DNA from: Protonemura montana
Lineage: Eukaryota; Arthropoda; Insecta; Plecoptera; Nemouridae
Direction: 5' to 3'
DNA: 64,000 nucleotides
Assembly (NCBI GenBank): GCA_947568835.1
Contig: OX387602.1
Span: forward strand, 1,086,570 to 1,150,569
This document shows, in pieces, positions 6,432 to 42,120 of the stretch. Made by a program: the position numbers and the translations under genes. Numbering within the stretch: the first letter of the stretch is position 1; each line of letters begins with the position of its first letter. The notes under the pieces were generated by a model. It ran no database searches, was not told the origin of the DNA, and worked only from the letters and a program-made list of their open reading frames with translations.

Positions 6432-6742
6432 ATGGCTTAAACAAAAACTATTTCAACTGGGTTTTGAATGCTAAGGAAAGAACAACTGAATTTCCCAACG
6501 TTTCGTAACGTGTACTAGTTACTTCTTGAAGGGTAAGAGCAGTCCTGACAATTTTCCAAAAACAAAAGAACTACACAAAATTATAACAATTCAAAGCATC
6601 CTAAATGCATCTAAATAAAATAATCAGGGTCAATAACTCAAAAACTAATGTATTTTGTATTTTCTGAAATAAAGTTTCCGAACAAATTGGCCTTTTTTTA
6701 CTAACTTGTTCAAAACCCATTTCAAATAGTTTTTGTTAAAAC
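6432..6742. mobile_element. Candidate short inverted-repeat (MITE-like) element
   Basis: The left end (about 6436-6470, AAACAAAAACTATTTCAACT then GGGTTTTGAATGC) is the imperfect reverse complement of the right end (about 6709-6738, TTCAAAACCCATTTCAAATA then GTTTTTGTT). The interior is AT-rich and has no coding potential. Related sequence appears near 42075-42110 and 51650-51690, so it is a dispersed family. No target-site duplication could be assigned. Confidence 0.5.
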
Positions 6743-6744
6743 TA

Positions 6745-6785
6745 GTGCTAAGGATAAATCAAGTAGACATGAGTCTAAAAACAAT
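6745..6785. repeat. Dispersed repeat, copy 1 (inverted partner near 42010)
   Basis: The segment from TAGTGCTAAGGATAAATCAA to GAGTCTAAAAAC is the near-perfect reverse complement of 42010-42053. It adjoins the inverted-repeat element just upstream, and the same two blocks also lie side by side at 42 kb. Confidence 0.55.
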
Positions 6786-7198
6786 CACAAGATGGATGGG
6801 CTGACAGTTGATTGGATTGAATATTATTTGCCCGGCGATAGATTGTTTTTCTAGATGACAGATCTAGATGCTTTTAAAGTTCAACTGTCAGTCAATCGGT
6901 AAAGCAAGTGAAATGGGGAACACTTGAGTATAGATTGTGTTGACCAGGATAATGATTCTAGAAATCGCATCCACGATTAATTAATTACAACCGTGGATAT
7001 GAGAAACAGCGTTGCACGATTTATGTGTTCGCGGCTTGTACCTATGTCAATGTGTGACCAATCAGCTGGTAGCATGCAAGTGCAGAGAGAAATCTGGCCG
7101 GAGATAATACCACGGCTCGCACACCACAGCGGCGGCCAATCAATGCAAATAACGCATTGGAGACTGTTATTAAATGCCGCCTCATCAACAGCTGGGTC

Positions 7199-7256: not shown

Positions 7257-7413
7257 GAGTCCTCTGATTGAAAACGTGAACCCGCTGGTCAGTGTGGACT
7301 GCGCGTGTAATCAGCCTCCAGGTGGTCGCCCCAAACATAAACTACTGCCGCAAAGCAAGTAAAATATTAGTCTTATTTCACGAGTTTGCCTCCTAGGAAC
7401 GACTCATCAACAC

Positions 7414-10400
7414 AGCACCCTCCACAGCACCCTCCACAGCACCCTCCACAGCACCCTCCACAGCACCCTCCACAGCACCCTCCACAGCACCCTCCACAGC
7501 ACCCTCCACAGCAGCCTCCACAGCAGCCTCCACAGCAGCCTCCACAGCACCCTCCACAGCACCCTCAACAGCACCCTCCACAGCACCCTCCACAGCACCC
7601 TCCACAGCACCCTCCACAGCACCCTCCACAGCACCCTCCACAGCAGCCTCCACAGCACCCTCCACAGCAGCCTCCACAGCAGCCTCCACAGCAGCCTCCA
7701 CAGCACCCTCCACAGCACCCTCCACAGCAGCCTCCACAGCACCCTCCACAGCACCCTCCACAGCACCCTCCACAGCACCCTCCACAGCAGCCTCCACAGC
7801 AGCCTCCACAGCAGCCTCCACAGCAGCCTCCACAGCACCCTCCACAGCAGCCTCCACAGCACCCTCCACAGCAGCCTCCACAGCAGCCTCCACAGCACCC
7901 TCCACAGCAGCCTCCACAGCACCCTCCACAGCAGCCTCCACAGCAGCCTCCACAGCACCCTCCACAGCAGCCTCCACAGCACCCTCCACAGCACCCTCCA
8001 CAGCAGCCTCCACAGCAGCCTCCACAGCAGCCTCCACAGCAGCCTCCACAGCACCCTCCACAGCAGCCTCCACAGCAGCCTCCACAGCACCCTCCACAGC
8101 AGCCTCCACAGCAGCCTCCACAGCAGCCTCCACAGCACCCTCCACAGCACCCTCCACAGCACCCTCCACAGCACCCTCCACAGCAGCCTCCACAGCAGCC
8201 TCCACAGCACCCTCCACAGCACCCTCCACAGCAGCCTCCACAGCACCCTCCACAGCAGCCTCCACAGCAGCCTCCACAGCAGCCTCCACAGCACCCTCCA
8301 CAGCACCCTCCACAGCACCCTCCACAGCACCCTCCACAGCAGCCTCCACAGCAGCCTCCACAGCACCCTCCACAGCACCCTCCACAGCAGCCTCCACAGC
8401 ACCCTCCACAGCAGCCTCCACAGCACCCTCCACAGCACCCTCCACAGCACCCTCCACAGCACCCTCCACAGCACCCTCCACAGCACCCTCCACAGCACCC
8501 TCCACAGCACCCTCCACAGCAGCCTCCACAGCACCCTCCACAGCACCCTCCACAGCACCCTCCACAGCAGCCTCCACAGCACCCTCCACAGCAGCCTCCA
8601 CAGCACCCTCCACAGCAGCCTCCACAGCAGCCTCCACAGCACCCTCCACAGCACCCTCCACAGCACCCTCCACAGCAGCCTCCACAGCACCCTCCACAGC
8701 ACCCTCCACAGCACCCTCCACAGCACCCTCCACAGCAGCCTCCACAGCAGCCTCCACAGCAGCCTCCACAGCACCCTCCACAGCACCCTCCACAGCAGCC
8801 TCCACAGCACCCTCCACAGCACCCTCCACAGCAGCCTCCACAGCACCCTCCACAGCACCCTCCACAGCAGCCTCCACAGCAGCCTCCACAGCAGCCTCCA
8901 CAGCAGCCTCCACAGCACCCTCCACAGCAGCCTCCACAGCAGCCTCCACAGCAGCCTCCACAGCAGCCTCCACAGCAGCCTCCACAGCAGCCTCCACAGC
9001 AGCCTCCACAGCACCCTCCACAGCAGCCTCCACAGCACCCTCCACAGCACCCTCCACAGCAGCCTCCACAGCAGCCTCCACAGCACCCTCCACAGCACCC
9101 TCCACAGCAGCCTTCACAGCACCCTCCACAGCACCCTCCACAGCACCCTCCACAGCACCCTCCACAGCACCCTCCACAGCACCCTCCACAGCACCCTCCA
9201 CAGCACCCTCCACAGCAGCCTCCACAGCACCCTCCACAGCACCCTCCACAGCAGCCTCCACAGCACCCTCCACAGCACCCTCCACAGCAGCCTCCACAGC
9301 AGCCTCCACAGCAGCCTCCACAGCAGCCTCCACAGCAGCCTCCACAGCACCCTCCACAGCACCCTCCACAGCACCCTCCACAGCACCCTCCACAGCACCC
9401 TCCACAGCAGCCTCCACAGCAGCCTCCACAGCAGCCTCCACAGCAGCCTCCACAGCACCCTCCACAGCAGCCTCCACAGCACCCTCCACAGCACCCTCAA
9501 CAGCACCCTCCACAGCACCCTCCACAGCACCCTCCACAGCACCCTCCACAGCACCCTCCACAGCACCCTCCACAGCAGCCTCCACAGCACCCTCCACAGC
9601 AGCCTCCACAGCAGCCTCCACAGCAGCCTCCACAGCACCCTCCACAGCACCCTCCACAGCAGCCTCCACAGCAGCCTCCACAGCAGCCTCCACAGCAGCC
9701 TCCACAGCACCCTCCACAGCAGCCTCCACAGCACCCTCCACAGCAGCCTCCACAGCAGCCTCCACAGCACCCTCCACAGCAGCCTCCACAGCACCCTCCA
9801 CAGCAGCCTCCACAGCAGCCTCCACAGCACCCTCCACAGCAGCCTCCACAGCACCCTCCACAGCACCCTCCACAGCAGCCTCCACAGCAGCCTCCACAGC
9901 AGCCTCCACAGCAGCCTCCACAGCAGCCTCCACAGCACCCTCCACAGCAGCCTCCACAGCACCCTCCACAGCACCCTCCACAGCAGCCTCCACAGCACCC
10001 TCCACAGCAGCCTCCACAGCAGCCTCCACAGCACCCTCCACAGCAGCCTCCACAGCACCCTCCACAGCAGCCTCCACAGCAGCCTCCACAGCACCCTCCA
10101 CAGCAGCCTCCACAGCACCCTCCACAGCAGCCTCCACAGCACCCTCCACAGCAGCCTCCACAGCAGCCTCCACAGCAGCCTCCACAGCACCCTCCACAGC
10201 ATCCTCCACAGCACCCTCCACAGCACCCTCCACAGCACCCTCCACAGCAGCCTCCACAGCACCCTCCACAGCACCCTCCACAGCAGCCTCCACAGCACCC
10301 TCCACAGCAGCCTCCACAGCACCCTCCACAGCACCCTCCACAGCACCCTCCACAGCACCCTCCACAGCACCCTCCACAGCACCCTCCACAGCAGCCTCCA

Positions 10401-13400
10401 CAGCACCCTCCACAGCACCCTCCACAGCAGCCTCCACAGCACCCTCCACAGCAGCCTCCACAGCACCCTCCACAGCAGCCTCCACAGCAGCCTCCACAGC
10501 ACCCTCCACAGCACCCTCCACAGCACCCTCCACAGCACCCTCCACAGCAGCCTCCACAGCAGCCTCCACAGCACCCTCCACAGCACCCTCCACAGCACCC
10601 TCCACAGCACCCTCCACAGCAGCCTCCACAGCACCCTCCACAGCACCCTCCACAGCAGCCTCCACAGCAGCCTCCACAGCACCCTCCACAGCAGCCTCCA
10701 CAGCAGCCTCCACAGCACCCTCCACAGCAGCCTCCACAGCAGCCTCCACAGCAGCCTCCACAGCAGCCTCCACAGCAGCCTCCACAGCAGCCTCCACAGC
10801 AGCCTCCACAGCACCCTCCACAGCAGCCTCCACAGCACCCTCCACAGCACCCTCCACAGCAGCCTCCACAGCAGCCTCCACAGCACCCTCCACAGCACCC
10901 TCCACAGCAGCCTCCACAGCACCCTCCACAGCAGCCTCCACAGCACCCTCCACAGCACCCTCCACAGCAGCCTCCACAGCACCCTCCACAGCAGCCTCCA
11001 CAGCACCCTCCACAGCACCCTCCACAGCACCCTCCACAGCACCCTCCACAGCACCCTCCACAGCACCCTCCACAGCAGCCTCCACAGCACCCTCCACAGC
11101 AGCCTCCACAGCAGCCTCCACAGCACCCTCCACAGCACCCTCCACAGCACCCTCCACAGCAGCCTCCACAGCAGCCTCCACAGCACCCTCCACAGCACCC
11201 TCCACAGCACCCTCCACAGCAGCCTCCACAGCAGCCTCCACAGCAGCCTCCACAGCACCCTCCACAGCACCCTCCACAGCACCCTCCACAGCACCCTCCA
11301 CAGCACCCTCCACAGCACCCTCCACAGCACCCTCCACAGCACCCTCCACAGCAGCCTCCACAGCAGCCTCCACAGCACCCTCCACAGCACCCTCCACAGC
11401 AGCCTCCACAGCAGCCTCCACAGCAGCCTCCACAGCAGCCTCCACAGCACCCTCCACAGCAGCCTCCACAGCAGCCTCCACAGCACCCTCCACAGCAGCC
11501 TCCACAGCAGCCTCCACAGCAGCCTCCACAGCACCCTCCACAGCACCCTCCACAGCAGCCTCCACAGCAGCCTCCACAGCAGCCTCCACAGCAGCCTCCA
11601 CAGCACCCTCCACAGCAGCCTCCACAGCAGCCTCCACAGCACCCTCCACAGCAGCCTCCACAGCAGCCTCCACAGCAGCCTCCACAGCACCCTCCACAGC
11701 ACCCTCCACAGCACCCTCCACAGCACCCTCCACAGCAGCCTCCACAGCAGCCTCCACAGCACCCTCCACAGCACCCTCCACAGCAGCCTCCACAGCACCC
11801 TCCACAGCAGCCTCCACAGCAGCCTCCACAGCAGCCTCCACAGCACCCTCCACAGCACCCTCCACAGCACCCTCCACAGCACCCTCCACAGCAGCCTCCA
11901 CAGCAGCCTCCACAGCACCCTCCACAGCACCCTCCACAGCAGCCTCCACAGCACCCTCCACAGCAGCCTCCACAGCACCCTCCACAGCACCCTCCACAGC
12001 ACCCTCCACAGCACCCTCCACATCACCCTCCAGAGCACCCTCCACAGCACCCTCCACAGCACCCTCCACAGCACCCTCCACAGCACCCTCCACAGCAGCC
12101 TCCACAGCAGCCTCCACAGCACCCTCCACAGCACCCTCCACAGCAGCCTCCACAGCAGCCTCCACAGCACCCTCCACAGCACCCTCCACAGCACCCTCCA
12201 CAGCAGCCTCCACAGCAGCCTCCACAGCACCCTCCACAGCACCCTCCACAGCAGCCTCCACAGCACCCTCCACAGCACCCTCCACAGCACCCTCCACAGC
12301 ACCCTCCACAGCAGCCTCCACAGCAGCCTCCACAGCACCCTCCACAGCACCCTCCACAGCACCCTCCACAGCAGCCTCCACAGCACCCTCCACAGCACCC
12401 TCCACAGCAGCCTCCACAGCACCCTCCACAGCACCCTCCACAGCACCCTCCACAGCACCCTCCACAGCAGCCTCCAAAGCACCCTCCACAGCACCCTCCA
12501 CAGCAGCCTCCACAGCAGCCTCCACAGCACCCTCCACAGCACCCTCCACAGCAGCCTCCACAGCAGCCTCCACAGCACCCTCCACAGCAGCCTCCACAGC
12601 ACCCTCCACAGCACCCTCCACAGCAGCCTCCACAGCACCCTCCACAGCAGCCTCCACAGCACCCTCCACAGCAGCCTCCACAGCAGCCTCCACAGCACCC
12701 TCCACAGCACCCTCCACAGCAGCCTCCACAGCAGCCTCCACAGCAGCCTCCACAGCAGCCTCCACAGCACCCTCCACAGCAGCCTCCACAGCAGCCTCCA
12801 CAGCAGCCTCCACAGCAGCCTCCACAGCAGCCTCCACAGCAGCCTCCACAGCAGCCTCCACAGCACCCTCCACAGCAGCCTCCACAGCACCCTCCACAGC
12901 ACCCTCCACAGCAGCCTCCACAGCAGCCTCCACAGCACCCTCCACAGCACCCTCCACAGCAGCCTCCACAGCACCCTCCACAGCAGCCTCCACAGCACCC
13001 TCCACAGCACCCTCCACAGCAGCCTCCACAGCACCCTCCACAGCAGCCTCCACAGCACCCTCCACAGCACCCTCCACAGCACCCTCCACAGCACCCTCCA
13101 CAGCACCCTCCACAGCACCCTCCACAGCAGCCTCCACAGCACCCTCCACAGCAGCCTCCACAGCAGCCTCCACAGCACCCTCCACAGCACCCTCCACAGC
13201 ACCCTCCACAGCAGCCTCCACAGCAGCCTCCACAGCACCCTCCACAGCACCCTCCACAGCACCCTCCACAGCACCCTCCACAGCAGCCTCCACAGCAGCC
13301 TCCACAGCACCCTCCACAGCACCCTCCACAGCACCCTCCACAGCAGCCTCCACAGCAGCCTCCACAGCAGCCTCCACAGCACCCTCCACAGCAGCCTCCA

Positions 13401-14296
13401 CAGCACCCTCCACAGCACCCTCCACAGCACCCTCCACAGCACCCTCCACAGCACCCTCCACAGCACCCTCCACAGCACCCTCCACAGCAGCCTCCACAGC
13501 AGCCTCCACAGCACCCTCCACAGCACCCTCCACAGCACCCTCCACAGCACCCTCCACAGCACCCTCCACAGCAGCCTCCACAGCAGCCTCCACAGCAGCC
13601 TCCACAGCACCCTCCACAGCACCCTCCACAGCACCCTCCACAGCACCCTCCACAGCACCCTCCACAGCACCCTCCACAGCAGCCTCCACAGCACCCTCCA
13701 CAGCAGCCTCCACAGCAGCCTCCACAGCACCCTCCACAGCAGCCTCCACAGCAGCCTCCACAGCAGCCTCCACAGCAGCCTCCACAGCAGCCTCCACAGC
13801 AGCCTCCACAGCAGCCTCCACAGCAGCCTCCACAGCACCCTCCACAGCAGCCTCCACAGCAGCCTCCACAGCACCCTCCACAGCAGCCTCCACAGCAGCC
13901 TCCACAGCAGCCTCCACAGCAGCCTCCACAGCAGCCTCCACAGCAGCCTCCACAGCAGCCTCCACAGCAGCCTCCACAGCAGCCTCCACAGCAGCCTCCA
14001 CAGCAGCCTCCACAGCAGCCTCCACAGCAGCCTCCACAGCAGCCTCCACAGCAGCCTCCACAGCAGCCTCCACAGCAGCCTCCACAGCAGCCTCCACAGC
14101 ACCCTCCACAGCACCCTCCACAGCAGCCTCCACAGCAGCCTCCACAGCAGCCTCCACAGCAGCCTCCACAGCAGCCTCCACAGCACCCTCCACAGCACCC
14201 TCCACAGCAGCCTCCACAGCAGCCTCCACAGCAGCCTCCACAGCAGCCTCCACAGCACCCTCCACAGCAGCCTCCACAGCAGCCTCCACAGCAGCA
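7414..14296. repeat. Giant 12-bp minisatellite (CCTCCACAGCAS)n, about 574 copies
   Basis: An unbroken array of about 6.9 kb of CCTCCACAGCAC and CCTCCACAGCAG units. Departures are very few: CCTCAACAGCAC near 7567 and 9499, CCTTCACAGCAC near 9112, a terminal T near 10202, two changes near 12023-12033, and CCTCCAAAGCAC near 12475. The unit has no stop in any of its six frames, so the long frames (Pro-Pro-Gln-His/Gln on +; Ala-Val-Glu-Gly/Ala and Leu-Trp-Arg types on -) follow from composition and are not evidence for a protein. The + frame has no ATG at its start. The order of C and G variants shows repeated segmental duplications (see findings). It ends about 2.5 kb upstream of the first Pax3/7 exon. 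Confidence 0.97.
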
Positions 14297-14952: not shown

Positions 14953-15078
14953 CCTAACCTAACCTAACCTAACCTAACCTAACCTAACCTAACCTAACCT
15001 AACCTAACCTAACCTAACCTAACCTAACCTAACCTAACCTAACCTAACCTAACCTAACCTAACCTAACCTAACCTAAC
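14953..15078 (-). repeat. Interstitial arthropod telomeric repeat, (TTAGG)25
   Basis: About 25 essentially perfect CCTAA units on +, which is TTAGG on the minus strand, the canonical telomere repeat of most arthropods. Unique sequence on both sides shows it is internal. A degenerate relic of the motif is seen at 28965-28980. Confidence 0.95.
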
Positions 15079-28277: not shown

Positions 28278-30163
28278 CGCATGTGAGCGACATAGCATGT
28301 TCGTCTTCCCGCCACCGTCCTCAACATCTTTGTGCCTCTACTTCGTTCTATCAATCTGCAGAGTGTGCTAGTTTCAGTTTTACTCTGCAGGTGTCGCAGA
28401 CCCAACGTGACATGCGAAATGCTGTCGAATCTCTTTGTGCATCTCCTTTTGATGCTCTTTACATCTTGAAATCAAATCCCTTTCGCTGGGCATTTAAACC
28501 GCTTCGAGTGCCGATCTCGGGATGTAACGCGCTTGTGATTCTTGTCCACCGAAGAATGCACCTTTGAGAGGCAATCAAATGTTACACAGGATTTGGTACA
28601 AATAATGAACTCCACGATTCACGACACTATTTCTTGCATTTTATGTGCAACGTCACGAAATGTTGTCAATATTGTTGAAAGCAGTGAAATGACCGAAGTG
28701 CATGTTATGTTATGTTAAAGACGCGACTCGGCTGGCGTTCTTGAGATGACATCACTCATCATCCATCAACTTGGCGACTTCATGAGACTCTTTTCAGCTC
28801 ACAATGTCTTTCACGATACCAACTTACTTTTTTTTCAAGTGGATAAGATATCTTTGAAGCCTTTGTAAAACGTGTCGAGAGTGCCATAACTCAAGCTATG
28901 AGATACCTGGCACCTCCACAGCATAGCACCGACGATATAGGAAATATAATTTTAGAACGAATCTAATCTAACCTAACCTGTCCTGTGCAGTTAGATGTGT
29001 AAAATAACTGATGTACTGTAAATAATTAAACGTAAGACTGATGATTTATAAACTTTGTGTTTTAGCTTTTAATACCTAAACCTCAAAACAATTGAATTCT
29101 CTGGGTGAAAATGGCGCCCAGTTTCCTGTTAGCTAGTTGAAAGTTAATGATATACAATCATTGGTAATGCATTGAACGGTCGCACGCCCCACGAGTTTAG
29201 AATTGTGCCAGATATTAGCCGCTCTTGACAACTTATCTCAATTCCTTGCCACGGCTACAAACTTAGCGGTACTTTATTCAGAATAATTGCTTCTCTCAGC
29301 AAAATAGGGGCTTCACCGCATTAAAAAAGAAGACATCGAGATTTCATGGCAAAGCACCGAGCTATTTTCCCCTGCCAATTAGCGTACAATTGTCCTTTAA
29401 TACTTGTAGGCGGCGGCGGCGGCGGCTTACACCCAACCCCAGGACAGCCAGCATTGCGTACCAATACCCTCGGATTTCTTGCTCGGCATGCAGGTCGCTC
29501 TCTTACCTCTCACCAAGCATAGCAAGGCTCGCTGACTTTTCATCATAAATCACAACAACTCAATACAAAAATCAATAAAACCCCGCAATTCAATTGACCT
29601 GCGCAACCGGTGTCAAAATCAGCGCTTGAAAAATATAATCCAGACGCGATCTTGGGAAGCCCCTTTCTATCAGGCAACCAGCAATCCTAATGCCTATACT
29701 ACACTTTATTGTAAAATTATTGGAGTCACCTTCCACTAGATTTTGCTTGAGTATATTTTATCCTGAATGCAGCAGAATATTCCTCCTAGACATGAAAGCT
29801 GAAAGTCGATCGCAGAGTTGAGACGTGGTGTTGCACAACCCGGCCGACGGAAGTCGATAGCGAGGTGAGTAGAGTGATCTCAAGAGCCCTCGATGTGACA
29901 TAGAGAGGCGCTAGACATCTTATGTGGGGGGCGTTTCACCAGCTTTCAGCAAACAATGCATCACGGCAATGCCAGACGGTAATGTTTACGAAGAAGATAC
30001 TGCCTGGGATCACTTGCATTTATTTGTTTTGCAAAATAAAATTGCATAAAAGCTTTACAAGTCCCCAGTTTTCGGATGTAACGCTTGAAATAGAGGAACT
30101 CTGCGGCATACGGTCGACAACCTTTCTCTGTCGCGCACAAAGAAGTGATTTTGTATTAGGATG
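28278..30163. other. 3' flank of Pax3/7, no further gene recognised
   Basis: Presumably starts with the Pax 3' UTR; a weak ATTAAA at about 29024 and an AATAAA near 29574 are candidate poly(A) signals. No other coding exon is recognised. Confidence 0.4.
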
Positions 30164-30475
30164 AAATCTTATTTAAATTGCAAACGCTTGCAATGCGCGG
30201 GGTATTTTATTATTAACAACACTATATAACCGTCTCAAAAATTGATGCCCATTAGAATCAGAGTGACTGTGAGTATTCACAGCCTCTTGGTTCTACTCCT
30301 TGGAGATCCGTCATTCTCATCAAATACACTAAAATCGTCTCTAAAAGCCAGTGTCCAAGTAGCTCAACTCAATGGTTCAGAGCAACACCCGTGAGAGGTG
30401 GAGATCGGGGTTCGAGTCCGCGTTCGGGGATCAATTTTTGAGACGGTTATAGTGTTCATAATAAAAAAAAATAGA
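30164..30475 (+). mobile_element. Inverted-repeat element with tRNA-like core, short copy
   Basis: Left part: TTGCAAACGCTTGCAATGCG then TTATTATTAACAACAC...CCGTCTCAAAAATTGATG. Right part (about 30430-30466): ATCAATTTTTGAGACGGTTA and TAGTGTTCATAATAA, the reverse complement of the left part. Between them at about 30352-30428 lies a tRNA-like segment with an A-box-like TAGCTCAACTCAATGG and a perfect B-box GGTTCGAGTCC, separated by about tRNA spacing. I read it as a non-autonomous element with terminal inverted repeats and a tRNA-derived (SINE-like) core. No transposase frame is present. Confidence 0.75.
30352..30428 (+). pseudogene. tRNA-like sequence within the element
   Basis: Box A-like and box B motifs are spaced as in a tRNA gene, but the anticodon arm (CACCCGTGAGAGGTG) lacks the usual U33 arrangement and the acceptor stem does not pair. 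It is a tRNA-derived promoter module, not a functional tRNA. Confidence 0.6.
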
Positions 30476-31076
30476 TTTTGTCTTAGAAAACTGATATATT
30501 AATTATAATTCTTATTATTTGTATTTGTTTATTTCTCGATTGACCAAAAACTTTGGTATGAGACATGTCATTACAATAATTACATGTTTACACAGTCTTT
30601 ACATATTTTAGTCTTAAAGGCTAAAATACTATTTACAGAATAAAATGCGTTATCTGCTAAGAATTTTTTCACATTCATTTTAAATACCTCGAATCTCTTT
30701 TGGTTTTTTTGGTGTTGAAAATGGGCAATATTTTGTTATAAATTAATAACCCAAGCGTAAGTCGTGGTTGAATTACATGCACTGAGTGATGTTAGCTAAT
30801 TTCAAATATTTTGATTCTAGTAAAGATTTAGTTTGCAATCAGCTGCACAATGACAACTTGACCCGACTTTATGTTGTGGCTTAAACTTATCACTGGTGTA
30901 AAAAAAGAGGCCAAAATACATCACTGAAATGGTCAAAATAGTCTCTCCATGATGAAATATTTGATGTAAGTGAGGGATGAAAGTGATGCGATTGGTAATT
31001 AGTCGAGTTGCTATGATAACCGGGCAGAGAAAAAAACTGATGCTTAGTTCCGGTGGAATAAGAATGTCATTTTTAG

Positions 31077-32340: not shown

Positions 32341-35300
32341 TACATCCTTTATTTATTATTATCAACACTAAAAACGTCTCAAAAATTGATGCCCAAACGG
32401 GGACTCGAAACCCGATCTCCACCTGTCACGGGTGTTGCTCTAACCAATTGAGCTACTTGAACCCCGATCTCCACCTGTCACGGGTGTTGCTCTAACCAAT
32501 TGAGCTACTTAGACCCCGATCTCCACCTGTCGCGGGTGTTGCTCTAACCAATTGAGCTACTTGGACCACGATCTCCACCTGTCGCGAGTGTTGCTCTAAC
32601 CAATTGAGCTACTTGAACCCCGATCTCCACCTGTCACGGGTGTTGATCTAACCCATTGAGCTACTTGAACCCCGATCTCCACCTGTCACGGGTGTTGCTC
32701 TAACCAATTGAGCTACTTGAACCCCGATCTCCACCTGTCGCGGGTGTTGGTCTAACCAATTGAGCTACTTGGACCCCGATCTCCACCTGTCACGGGTGTT
32801 GCTCTAACCAATTGAGCTACTTGAACCCCGATCTCCACCTGTCGCGGGTGTTGGTCTAACCAATTTAGCTACTTGGACCCCGATCTCCACCTGTCACGGG
32901 TGTTGATCTAACCAATTGAGCTACTTGGACCCCGATCTCCACCTGTCACGGGTGTTGATCTAACCCATTGAGCTACTTGGACCCCGATCTCCACCTGTCA
33001 CGGGTGTTGCTCTAACCAATTGAGCTACTTGAACCCCGATCTCCACCTGTCGCGGGTGTTGGTCTAACCAATTTAGCTACTTGGACCCCGATCTCCACCT
33101 GTCGCGGGTGTTGCTCTAACCAATTGAGCTACTTGGACCCCGATCTCCACCTGTCACGGGTGTTGATCTAACCCATTGAGCTACTTGGACCCCGATCTCC
33201 ACCTGTCACGGGTGTTGCTCTAACCAATTGAGCTACTTGAACCCCGATCTCCACCTGTCGCGGGTGTTGGTCTAACCAATTTAGCTACTTGGACCCCGAT
33301 CTCCACCTGTCACGGGTGTTGATCTAACCCATTGAGCTACTTGGACCCCGATCTCCACCTGTCGCGGGTGTTGGTCTAACCAATTGAGCTACTTGGACCC
33401 CGATCTCCACCTGTCACGGGTGTTGACCTAACCAATTGAGCTACTTGAACCCCGATCTCCACCTGTCGCGGGTGTTGGTCTAACCAATTTAGCTACTTGG
33501 ACCCCGATCTCCACCTGTCACGGGTGTTGATCTAACCCATTGAGCTATTTGGACCCCGATCTCCACCTGTCGCGGGTGTTGGTCTAACCAATTGAGCTAC
33601 TTGGACCCCGATCTCCACCTGTCACGGGTGTTGATCTAACCAATTGAGCTACTTGGACCCCGATCTCCACCTGTCACGGGTGTTGATCTAACCCATTGAG
33701 CTACTTGGACCCCGATCTCCACCTGTCACGGGTGTTGCTCTAACCAATTGAGCTACTTGAACCCCGATCTCCACCTGTCGCGGGTGTTGGTCTAACCAAT
33801 TTAGCTACTTGGACCCCGATCTCCACCTGTCACGGGTGTTGATCTAACCAATTGAGCTACTTGGACCCCGATCTCCACCTGTCACGGGTGTTGATCTAAC
33901 CCATTGAGCTACTTGGACCCCGATCTCCACCTGTCACGGGTGTTGCTCTAACCAATTGAGCTACTTGAACCCCGATCTCCACCTGTCGCGGGTGTTGGTC
34001 TAACCAATTTAGCTACTTGGACCCCGATCTCCACCTGTCGCGGGTGTTGCTCTAACCAATTGAGCTACTTGGACCCCGATCTCCACCTGTCACGGGTGTT
34101 GATCTAACCCATTGAGCTACTTGGACCCCGATCTCCACCTGTCACGGGTGTTGCTCTAACCAATTGAGCTACTTGAACCCCGATCTCCACCTGTCACGGG
34201 TGTTGATCTAACCCATTGAGCTACTTGGACCCCGATCTCCACCTGTCGCGGGTGTTGCTCTAACCAATTGAGCTACTTGGACCCCGATCTCCACCTGTCG
34301 CGGGTGTTGCTCTAACCAATTGAGCTACTTGGACCCCGATCTCCACCTGTCACGGGTGTTGATCTAACCAATTGAGCTACTTGGACCCCGATCTCCACCT
34401 GTCACGGGTGTTGATCTAACCCATTGAGCTACTTGGACCCCGATCTCCACCTGTCACGGGTGTTGCTCTAACCAATTGAGCTACTTGAACCACGATTTCC
34501 ACCTGTCGCGGGTGTTGGTCTAACCAATTTAGCTACTTGGACCCCGATCTTCACCTGTCACGGGTGTTGATCTAACCCATTGAGCTACTTGGACCCCGAT
34601 CTCTACCTGTCGCGGGTGTTGGTCTAACCAATTGAGCTTCTTGGACCCCGATCTCCACCTGTCACGGGTGTTGATCTAACCAATTGAGCTACTTGGACCC
34701 CGATCTCCACCTGTCACGGGTGTTGATCTAACCAATTGAGCTACTTGAACCCCGATCTCCACCTGTCGCGGGTGTTGGTCTAACCAATTTAGCTACTTGG
34801 ACCCCGATCTCCACCTGTCGCAGGTGTTGTTCTAACCAATTGAGCTACTTGAACCCCGATCTCCACCTGTCACGGGTGTTGATCTAACCCATTGAGCTAC
34901 TTGGACCCCGATCTCCACCTGTCACGGGTGTTGATCTAACCCATTGAGCTACTTGGACCCCGATCTCCACCTGTCGCGGGTGTTGCTCTAACCAATTGAG
35001 CTACTTGGACCCCGATCTCCACCTGTCGCGGGTGTTGCTCTAACCAATCGAGCTACTTGGACCCCGATCTCCACCTGTCACGGGTGTTGATCTAACCCAT
35101 TGAGCTACTTGGACCCCGATCTCTACCTGTCGCGGGTGTTGCTCTAACCAATTGAGCTACTTGGACCCCGATCTCCACCTGTCGCGGGTGTTGCTCTAAC
35201 CAATCGAGCTACTTGGACCCCGATCTCCACCTGTCACGGGTGTTGATCTAACCCATTGAGCTACTTGGACCCCGATCTCTACCTGTCGCGGGTGTTGCTC

Positions 35301-35966
35301 TAACCAATTGAGCTACTTGGACCCCGATCTCCACCTGTCGCGGGTGTTGCTCTAACCAATCGAGCTACTTGGACCCCGATCTCCACCTGTCACGGGTGTT
35401 GATCTAACCCATTGAGCTACTTGGACCCCGATCTCTACCTGTCGCGGGTGTTGCTCTAACCAATTGAGCTACTTGGACCCCGATCTCCACCTGTCGCGGG
35501 TGTTGCTCTAACCAATCGAGCTACTTGGACCCCGATCTCCACCTGTCACGGGTGTTGATCTAACCCATTGAGCTACTTGGACCCCGATCTCTACCTGTCG
35601 CGGGTGTTGCTCTAACCAATTGAGCTACTTGGACCCCGATCTCCACCTGTCGCGGGTGTTGCTCTAACCAATCGAGCTACTTGGACCCCGATCTCCACCT
35701 GTCACGGGTGTTGATCTAACCCATTGAGCTACTTGGACCCCGATCTCTACCTGTCGCGGGTGTTGCTCTAACCAATTGAGCTACTTGGACCCCGATCTCC
35801 ACCTGTCGCGGGTGTTGCTCTAACCAATTGAGCTACTTGGACACTGACTTTTTAAGATGATTTAAGTGCATTTTAGTGCATCAATATTTGAGACGTTCAT
35901 AATGTTGATAATAATAAACTACCCGGCGCATTGCATTGCAAGCGTTTGCAATTTCAATACGATTTC
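32341..35966 (-). mobile_element. Inverted-repeat element with tRNA-like core, satellite-expanded copy
   Basis: The same family as 30164-30475 in the opposite orientation. The left end has TTATTATTATCAACAC...ACGTCTCAAAAATTGATGCC. The right end has GCATCAATATTTGAGACGTT...GTTGATAATAATAAA followed by GCATTGCAAGCGTTTGCAAT, the reverse complement of the left flank of the short copy. The interior is the 52-bp satellite listed separately. The shared flank shows the family extends beyond the inverted repeats. Confidence 0.78.
32409..35848 (-). repeat. 52-bp satellite made of tRNA-like units, about 66 copies
   Basis: Minus-strand unit: TTCAAGTAGCTCAATTGGTT then AGAGCAACACCCGTGACAGG then TGGAGATCGGGG. 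Each unit carries a perfect box A (TAGCTCAATTGG) and, across the junction, a partial B-box (GGTTCAAG). One nearly full B-box (GTTTCGAGTCC) survives at the array's promoter-distal end, near 32400-32412. Three main variants (CACGGGTGTTGCTC, CGCGGGTGTTGGTC, CACGGGTGTTGATCTAACCC) are interleaved. From about 35070 to 35840 they form a 156-bp three-unit higher-order repeat, about five times. Confidence 0.93.
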
Positions 35967-36196
35967 AACAAACCGACATCGTTATTTCCCATCTCTGATT
36001 TCAGCTAAGCAGGTCCGGGTTAAAATTTACATTTGAATGTTTTCCCCGCAAATTAAAAATGTATTCTCTCCTTATTTTTTCGTTTTCTCAAAATTTTGCT
36101 TCAAATCTTGCCCAACTCGGTCAACCCTTCAATACTACTTATAAACTTCATCTGCGCTGCTCGCATTCAAAATCCACGATCCAAACCAAGACATCA

Positions 36197-41878: not shown

Positions 41879-42120
41879 CGGATTTCAAAACATCATATAA
41901 ATCTATTTGAATTTTCATTACTTTTTGTGGAACTTTGATACCAAGTGATTTTTCCTTTTTTCAATTTATATGAGAGTTTAATGAAAATCACTGAAGATAA
42001 AATATCAATGGTTTTTAGACTCATATCTACTTGATTTATCCTTAGCACTAAATTTAGTAGCCCTTTACTTAGCATTCAAAACCCAGTTCAAATAGTTTTT
42101 CTTAATAAAATATCAAGTTA
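41879..42120. repeat. Dispersed repeat, copy 2
   Basis: 42010-42053 (GTTTTTAGACTCATATCTAC...CCTTAGCACTA) and 42075-42112 (TTAGCATTCAAAACCCAGTT...AATAGTTTTT) are reverse-complement matches to 6745-6785 and 6440-6472. It lies in the proposed first intron of NPLP1. Confidence 0.55.

What the first reader, a model, noticed from the sequence alone, without database searches (positions are those of the whole stretch)
32341..35966. A satellite grown from a tRNA-like promoter inside an inverted-repeat element
The minus strand of a 3.4-kb array is about 66 copies of a 52-bp unit, each carrying a perfect pol III box A (TAGCTCAATTGG). The array sits between inverted repeats of an element whose unexpanded relative (30164-30475) has a single tRNA-like core with box A-like and perfect B-box motifs. 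The unit runs from TTCAAG in the tRNA-like 5' half to GGGG just before the B-box, so it could have arisen by recombination between the short similarities GGTTCGAG and GGTTCAAG. Every junction then forms a partial B-box. The observation is in the sequence; the origin model is inference.
Basis: partly seen in the sequence, partly recalled or inferred. Interest (0 to 1): 0.78.

Follow-up and report, generated by a model that had tools for sequence, protein, structure and literature searches.

The report
tRNA-bearing mini-Penelope element turned satellite
A small, very common jumping element that carries a copy of a tRNA gene looks as if it was inserted by Penelope-type (telomerase-related) enzymes, and mostly near chromosome ends the first 52 bases of its tRNA part have been repeated in place into a small satellite; both halves of this story are known elsewhere, and I did not find the combination described.

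Summary
The array is real: 66 head-to-tail 52-bp units on the minus strand, all 65 spacings exactly 52. Only 34 of 66 carry the exact box A 12-mer; 60 of 66 fit a consensus. The last unit runs into a T arm and scores as a tRNA (38.8 bits). The genome (258 Mb) holds 14,043 unit junctions and 4,890 T-arm ends.

The host element is neither a DNA transposon nor a Helitron. Flanks share direct repeats in 22 of 35 copies (1.8% when shuffled); two inverted arms carry a ~48-bp tail on exactly one side in 35 of 38. That is the published signature of Penelope-like elements (PLEs), and a resident GIY-YIG-bearing family shows it too (15 of 16 inverted pairs). I read it as a non-autonomous PLE with a tRNA-like gene in its pLTR; no autonomous partner with these ends was found.

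Arrays grew in place from the tRNA 5' half. Three duplicates of one insertion hold 12, 7 and 6 units; 76 of 85 exact array ends lie within 3 Mb of contig ends, 27.5% expected. Precedents: SINE-derived satellites, tRNA-bearing TRIMs. Pol III activity is untested.

The parts
32350..35970 (.). Element B: inverted pLTR arms around the expanded tRNA-like core; ends approximate
   Evidence: modules B< R<66 B> O>; no clear target duplication (best ACATCCTT at 32342 / ACATCGTT at 35976, score 6)
32411..35842 (-). 66 x 52-bp array, each unit the 5' 52 nt of the tRNA-like gene
   Evidence: TRF; unit list; lags
32390..32462 (-). complete tRNA-like gene formed by the last unit plus T arm
   Evidence: Rfam RF00005 38.8 bits; ARAGORN tRNA-Ser(TGA)
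32350..32392 (-). left arm end without tail (A-rich end outward), conserved ATCAATTTTTGAGACG motif
   Evidence: motif at 32375
35843..35877 (-). remnant of module M that precedes the tRNA-like gene
   Evidence: sequence; first unit preceded by AAAAAGTCAGT
35878..35918 (+). right arm end: arm motif and A-rich stretch
35919..35970 (+). tail O with near-palindrome, on this arm only
30160..30473 (.). Element A: unexpanded relative, O< B< M> R> B>
   Evidence: layout; 120 BLAST rows from 2565 candidates genome-wide
30147..30159 (+). target duplication of element A, left copy GATTTTGTATTAG
30474..30486 (+). target duplication of element A, right copy GATTTTGTCTTAG
30353..30431 (+). single tRNA-like core of element A with B box at 30409-30419
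   Evidence: not called by Rfam at E<=1

Best explanation
A non-autonomous Penelope-like retroposon whose pLTR carries a tRNA-derived gene. Shown: copies are flanked by short direct repeats, have two head-to-head inverted arms, and carry a ~48-bp tail on one arm. Inferred: the GIY-YIG/RT protein of a Penelope element cuts both DNA strands and starts reverse transcription once at each of two adjacent RNA sites, one per strand, giving one arm with and one without the tail. The tRNA-like part is probably a captured pol III promoter that drives, or once drove, the template RNA. Shown: inside the pLTR the first 52 nt of the tRNA-like gene became tandem, nearly always at the same joint, and the last unit keeps the T arm; array length changes after insertion; arrays sit in distal contig zones. 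Inferred: the first duplication used the short similarity GTTCGAGT / GTCCAAGT; unequal exchange or conversion in distal, repeat-rich zones then enlarged some copies, here to 66.
For: Target duplications: 22 of 35 score >=9 against 1.8% shuffled (one of the 22, L059, does not abut the element). Exactly one tail: 35 of 38. The resident family PLE-1, found downstream of GIY-YIG-like frames (L099-L101, L103, L104), has the same anatomy: 15 of 16 inverted pairs one-tailed, target duplications in 8 of 15 pairs tested against 1.9%. Published PLE anatomy and the two start sites: PMC3846280 passages, PMC11167929 abstract and passages. Arrays: 166 of 169 spacings = 52, 17 of 20 end in the T arm; duplicates with 12, 7 and 6 units; 76 of 85 ends within 3 Mb of contig ends, all 85 within 5 Mb.
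Against: No autonomous PLE with these pLTRs was found: none of the modules occurs behind the GIY-YIG frames read, apart from one nested insertion. 13 of 35 copies, element B among them, show no clear target duplication; 3 of 38 show no tail and one of the 35 has a truncated second tail. No hammerhead ribozyme, common in PLEs, was found in four loci. The T5 run behind the tRNA-like gene (T4+ in 65 of 69 copies) should end pol III transcripts before the tail.
Confidence: 0.72

Rival explanations
1. A SINE with tRNA head moved by a LINE; the inverted structure comes from twin priming or fold-back of the cDNA.
For: tRNA-like part, A-rich end, target duplications of 9-17 bp.
Against: The tRNA-like part is not at the 5' end; it lies at either arm or both. 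One-tailed inverted arms in 35 of 38 match the resident PLE family and are not expected of LINE products. LINE genes were not searched here.
Confidence: 0.17
2. A non-autonomous Helentron (HINE) with central tandem repeats, moved by rolling-circle replication.
For: Inverted subterminal repeats, palindrome near one end, CTAA-like end, central repeats; many Helitron genes in the genome. HINEs are defined by such modules (PMC7492417 passages).
Against: Target duplications, which HINEs lack; core in both orientations, whereas Cg_HINE repeats keep one orientation.
Confidence: 0.04
3. The array is a functional pol III / TFIIIC domain kept at chromosome ends by selection.
For: 60 of 66 window units fit box A; distal location.
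Against: Boxes are not better conserved than neighbouring sequence; units lack box B; reading direction is random towards the contig end (46 of 85 outward); the window holds 14 other tandem arrays of at least 400 bp, so tandem growth is general here.
Confidence: 0.06
4. The repeats are made during reverse transcription: the nascent strand ending in the acceptor sequence re-anneals to the T arm and the enzyme copies the same 52 nt again, in the manner of telomerase.
For: Joint at the right similarity in 20 of 20 loci with few exceptions in spacing; PLE RT is related to telomerase RT (stated in the abstract of PMC3846280); arrays of two core subtypes have the same joint.
Against: DNA-level exchange predicts the same joint; array length differs between duplicates of one insertion; strong distal bias points to chromosomal context.
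Confidence: 0.12

Closest known systems
Penelope-like elements with inverted pLTRs and tail (Adineta vaga, PMC3846280; Poseidon of Anolis, PMC11167929)
   Same: Inverted pLTRs, tail on one arm, direct partial dimers, short target duplications; pLTR-only units can be moved in trans.
   Different: No ORF; a tRNA-like gene and 52-bp arrays inside the pLTR; no hammerhead found.
TRIMp3 (Helenus, Ajax, Cassandra), non-autonomous LTR elements with tRNA or 5S sequence in the LTR (PMC10886601, abstract and outline)
   Same: Non-autonomous retroelement with a pol III-type gene in its terminal repeat.
   Different: Those are LTR elements with 4-5-bp target duplications, PBS and PPT; here the anatomy is that of a PLE with longer duplications.
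SINE-derived satellites of squamates (PMC10702118, passages)
   Same: Part of a tRNA-related retroposon tandemly expanded in place, leading and trailing monomers keep the parent sequence, alternating sub-variants, subtelomeric preference stronger for longer loci.
   Different: Parent there is a LINE-dependent SINE; unit 67-143 nt with box B or body; here the unit is the box A half without box B.
HINE / Cg_HINE and DINE elements with central satellite-like repeats (PMC7492417, PMC9659126, passages)
   Same: Mobile element with inverted subterminal repeats spreading satellite-like arrays.
   Different: Rolling-circle type, no target duplications, repeats in one fixed orientation.
Hy/polIII, Rana/polIII, OAX satellites of amphibians (as summarised in PMC10702118)
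   Same: Tandem repeats said to be tRNA-related.
   Different: Units of about 200 nt or more and disputed origin; here the 52-bp unit maps exactly onto a tRNA-like gene in a known parent element.

Membership tests
Penelope-like element | Inverted and/or direct pLTRs around or without an ORF | tested here: met
   module layouts
Penelope-like element | Tail extension on one of the inverted pLTRs | tested here: met
   35 of 38; same in PLE-1, 15 of 16
Penelope-like element | Target duplications of roughly 8-15 bp | tested here: met
   22 of 35 against 1.8% shuffled; matched stretches up to 17 bp
Penelope-like element | Mobilised by a PLE RT with GIY-YIG endonuclease sharing its ends | tested here: inconclusive
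   94 GIY-YIG-like matches; 3' flanks of six frames read, none is a pLTR of this family; no RT read
Penelope-like element | Hammerhead ribozyme in pLTR (many but not all PLEs) | tested here: not met
   no hit at E<=5 in four loci; optional feature
Helitron / Helentron (HINE) | No target duplication | tested here: not met
tRNA SINE | tRNA-related head at the 5' end and LINE-derived 3' end | tested here: not met
   core at either arm or both; LINE partner not searched
TRIMp3 | LTRs with PBS/PPT and 4-5-bp target duplications | tested here: not met
   longer duplications; PBS/PPT not searched
TE-derived satellite | Tandem units of an internal TE segment flanked by the rest of the TE | tested here: met
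Pol III gene | Pol III transcription | not testable with these tools
   no expression data held

The most novel reading that the evidence does not exclude
A pol III-promoted miniature Penelope element, the PLE counterpart of SINEs and TRIMp3, which uses the two PLE reverse-transcription start sites in a coupled way, one per DNA strand at each insertion; and a telomerase-related enzyme may itself have made the first 52-nt repeats by template re-use at the tRNA T arm.
Probability: 0.22. Interest if true: 0.72.

Novelty: new variant of a known kind. Interest (0 to 1): 0.5.

Why it matters
It joins three separate stories in one dense family: Penelope insertion, capture of a pol III gene by a retroelement terminal repeat, and the birth of a satellite. 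The near-constant one-tailed, one-untailed arm pattern (35 of 38 here; 15 of 16 in PLE-1) constrains how PLEs use their two reverse-transcription start sites. The family shows a satellite at many stages from 1 to 66 units at one joint, with arrays in distal zones while young single units are more widely spread, so birth and expansion can be told apart.

Tried and rejected
Helitron/Helentron: my own first reading of the one-sided palindrome and CTAA end; dropped when target duplications appeared. Orientation towards telomeres: exact T-arm matches at the right end of C1 (>=30 Mb) are 25 of 26 on '+' (my count, which lists 100 of 4,890), but over all 85 exact array ends only 46 read outward, so it is local. 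Preferential conservation of promoter boxes: not seen; the most conserved stretch is the arm motif with T5, but many loci had been picked by that motif; in the two subsets not picked by it the motif is best conserved in one (36 copies) and not in the other (11 copies). Hammerhead ribozyme: no hit in four loci. PLE-1 as direct parent: its 3' ends carry none of the modules; only the last bases of the tail are alike (CATCATAA / CATCCTAA), which I do not count as evidence. A second GIY-YIG family (L102) has none either. tRNA-Ser origin: not followed; short variable arm and G33 make the anticodon call unreliable (my own reading of the fold). Host species: not identified. In print: ten searches of one open-access library gave no tRNA-bearing Penelope element in the listings seen; subscription journals are mostly missing and PMC8557442 on PLEs was not held.

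Full report
What is there. The minus strand of 32411-35842 holds 66 units of 52 bp, all 65 spacings exactly 52. The exact 12-mer TAGCTCAATTGG occurs in 34 of 66 units; 60 of 66 fit the recalled box A consensus. The unit is positions 1 to about 52 of a tRNA-like gene. The unit next to the left end runs on into the T arm, so 32390-32462 scores as a complete tRNA (38.8 bits; ARAGORN too). Cores in other loci reach 44.5 bits. RNAfold gives a cloverleaf-like fold for the consensus (-26.3 kcal/mol, z -2.0, 7 of 200 shuffles as good). By my own drawing position 33 is G and the variable arm is short, so the Ser(TGA) label means little.

Genome-wide. The window lies in an unnamed 258-Mb, 34-contig genome. 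Unit junctions number 14,043 (<=3 mismatches), T-arm ends 4,890 (<=3), arm motifs 3,797 (<=1); the same patterns read backwards gave 0 each. That is about three extra units per T arm on average.

What the element is. I aligned 108 arm ends (the output was cut, so not every row was seen). There are two kinds: a short end finishing ..GTTATAGTGTTGATAATAATAAAAT, and a long end that goes on for about 48 bp with a near-palindrome (tail O). Of 38 elements with both arms in reach, 35 have exactly one long end, none both, 3 none detected; by eye one of the 35 (L021, 381-502) has a truncated second tail. Flanks match as direct repeats: 22 of 35 pairs score 9 or more against 1.8% when partners are shuffled; the matched stretches run to 17 bp. 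One of the 22 (L059) does not abut the element, and 13 of 35 show nothing clear. Element A in the window has GATTTTGTATTAG at 30147 and GATTTTGTCTTAG at 30474; element B has no clear pair. This speaks against Helitrons and for insertion with a staggered cut. BLAST of modules shows the unit O-N-M-R-B in direct dimers, inverted pairs and mixtures, with the tRNA-like part R at one arm or both. I read M-R-B(-O) as the pLTR and N as the internal stretch; that reading is inference.

Why Penelope. Passages of PMC3846280 describe PLEs with an inverted pLTR beside direct ones, target duplications, and an optional 31-bp tail on one inverted pLTR. PMC11167929 (abstract and passages) reports that a PLE protein cuts and extends both strands and starts reverse transcription at two adjacent sites whose spacing is the tail. 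The 3' flanks of six such frames were read; five (L099, L100, L101, L103, L104) belong to one family, PLE-1, and L102 to another. A query from its 3' end finds 16 inverted pairs in the stretches held, 15 with a ~50-bp tail on one arm only, and target duplications in 8 of the 15 pairs that I gave, against 1.9% shuffled. Two of these pairs lie in the window (6437-6790, 42008-42105). The tRNA-bearing element thus has the anatomy of a resident PLE, though not its sequence; its own autonomous partner was not found, and neither RT nor LINE genes were searched.

How the array arose. The stretches held contain 20 array loci and 78 single cores; about half of the arrays were fetched because they are arrays. 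Of the 20, 18 begin right after module M where the tRNA-like gene begins, and 17 end in the T arm; the other three are duplicates of one insertion. 166 of 169 spacings are 52 (65 of them in the window). Arrays of the other core subtype (L020, L059) have the same joint, so the joint either recurred or was carried over by conversion; mixed subtypes inside arrays (L095, L081) fit conversion. Three loci on C1 (23.33, 22.42, 20.98 Mb) share both flanks but hold 12, 7 and 6 units: array length changes in DNA after insertion. In the window array exact identity peaks at lags 3, 4 and 6, not 1, a sign of block duplication.

Where arrays sit. One exact 64-nt array-end pattern has 85 places: all lie within 5 Mb of a contig end and 76 within 3 Mb, against 27.5% expected (p 6e-33). 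It samples only arrays with that exact end. Young unexpanded units are less distal: 20 of 39 within 3 Mb (40 best rows of 2,175 candidates; one on a contig of unknown length dropped); Fisher p 1e-5. Contig ends are assumed to be chromosome ends. A like distal preference was reported for SINE-derived satellites in snakes (PMC10702118, passages).

Pol III. Boxes A and B are present in the tRNA-like gene, but the T run right behind it (T4 or longer in 65 of 69 copies) would be expected to end transcripts before the tail, and the boxes are not better conserved than module M. The promoter reading is plausible for origin and unproven for present use. Nothing here shows that box A drives the expansion: the window alone holds 14 other tandem arrays of 400 bp or more; with this one they cover 20,220 of 64,000 bp.

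Verdict. A known process, satellite birth inside a retroposon, in an unusual host: a tRNA-bearing, Penelope-type miniature element. Closest precedents are TRIMp3 for the promoter capture (PMC10886601, abstract and outline) and sSats for the satellite. Odds were lowered a little on rechecking, because no RT domain was read and LINEs were not searched.

Noticed in passing
G000 contigs C7, C8, C33 and distal parts of C4, C5, C11, C12, C15: At least 150 scored Helitron_like_N matches of 207 candidates, nearly all listed with equal scores and long open frames, clustered on small contigs and near contig ends: a young Helitron family in distal blocks.
   Followed up: no
window 6437-6790 and 42008-42105: Two copies of the resident Penelope-like family PLE-1, as inverted pairs with a tail on one arm.
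   Followed up: partly
window 14953-15078: 25 copies of CCTAA (TTAGG), an insect-type telomere-like repeat about 1.1 Mb from the contig end.
   Followed up: no
window, 15 arrays of 400 bp or more: Very high tandem-repeat load: 15 arrays cover 20,220 of 64,000 bp, among them a 6.9-kb array of a 12-bp unit at 7411-14293.
   Followed up: partly
G000 C16: None of 85 exact array ends lies on C16, although matches show this contig to be at least 27.8 Mb long.
   Followed up: no
G000 C1, 30-33 Mb: 25 of 26 listed exact T-arm matches are on the + strand, a strong local orientation bias that is not seen over all array ends.
   Followed up: partly
L090, about 30-85: A different tRNA-like stretch beside a 5-unit array, perhaps another SINE (sequence).
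   Followed up: no
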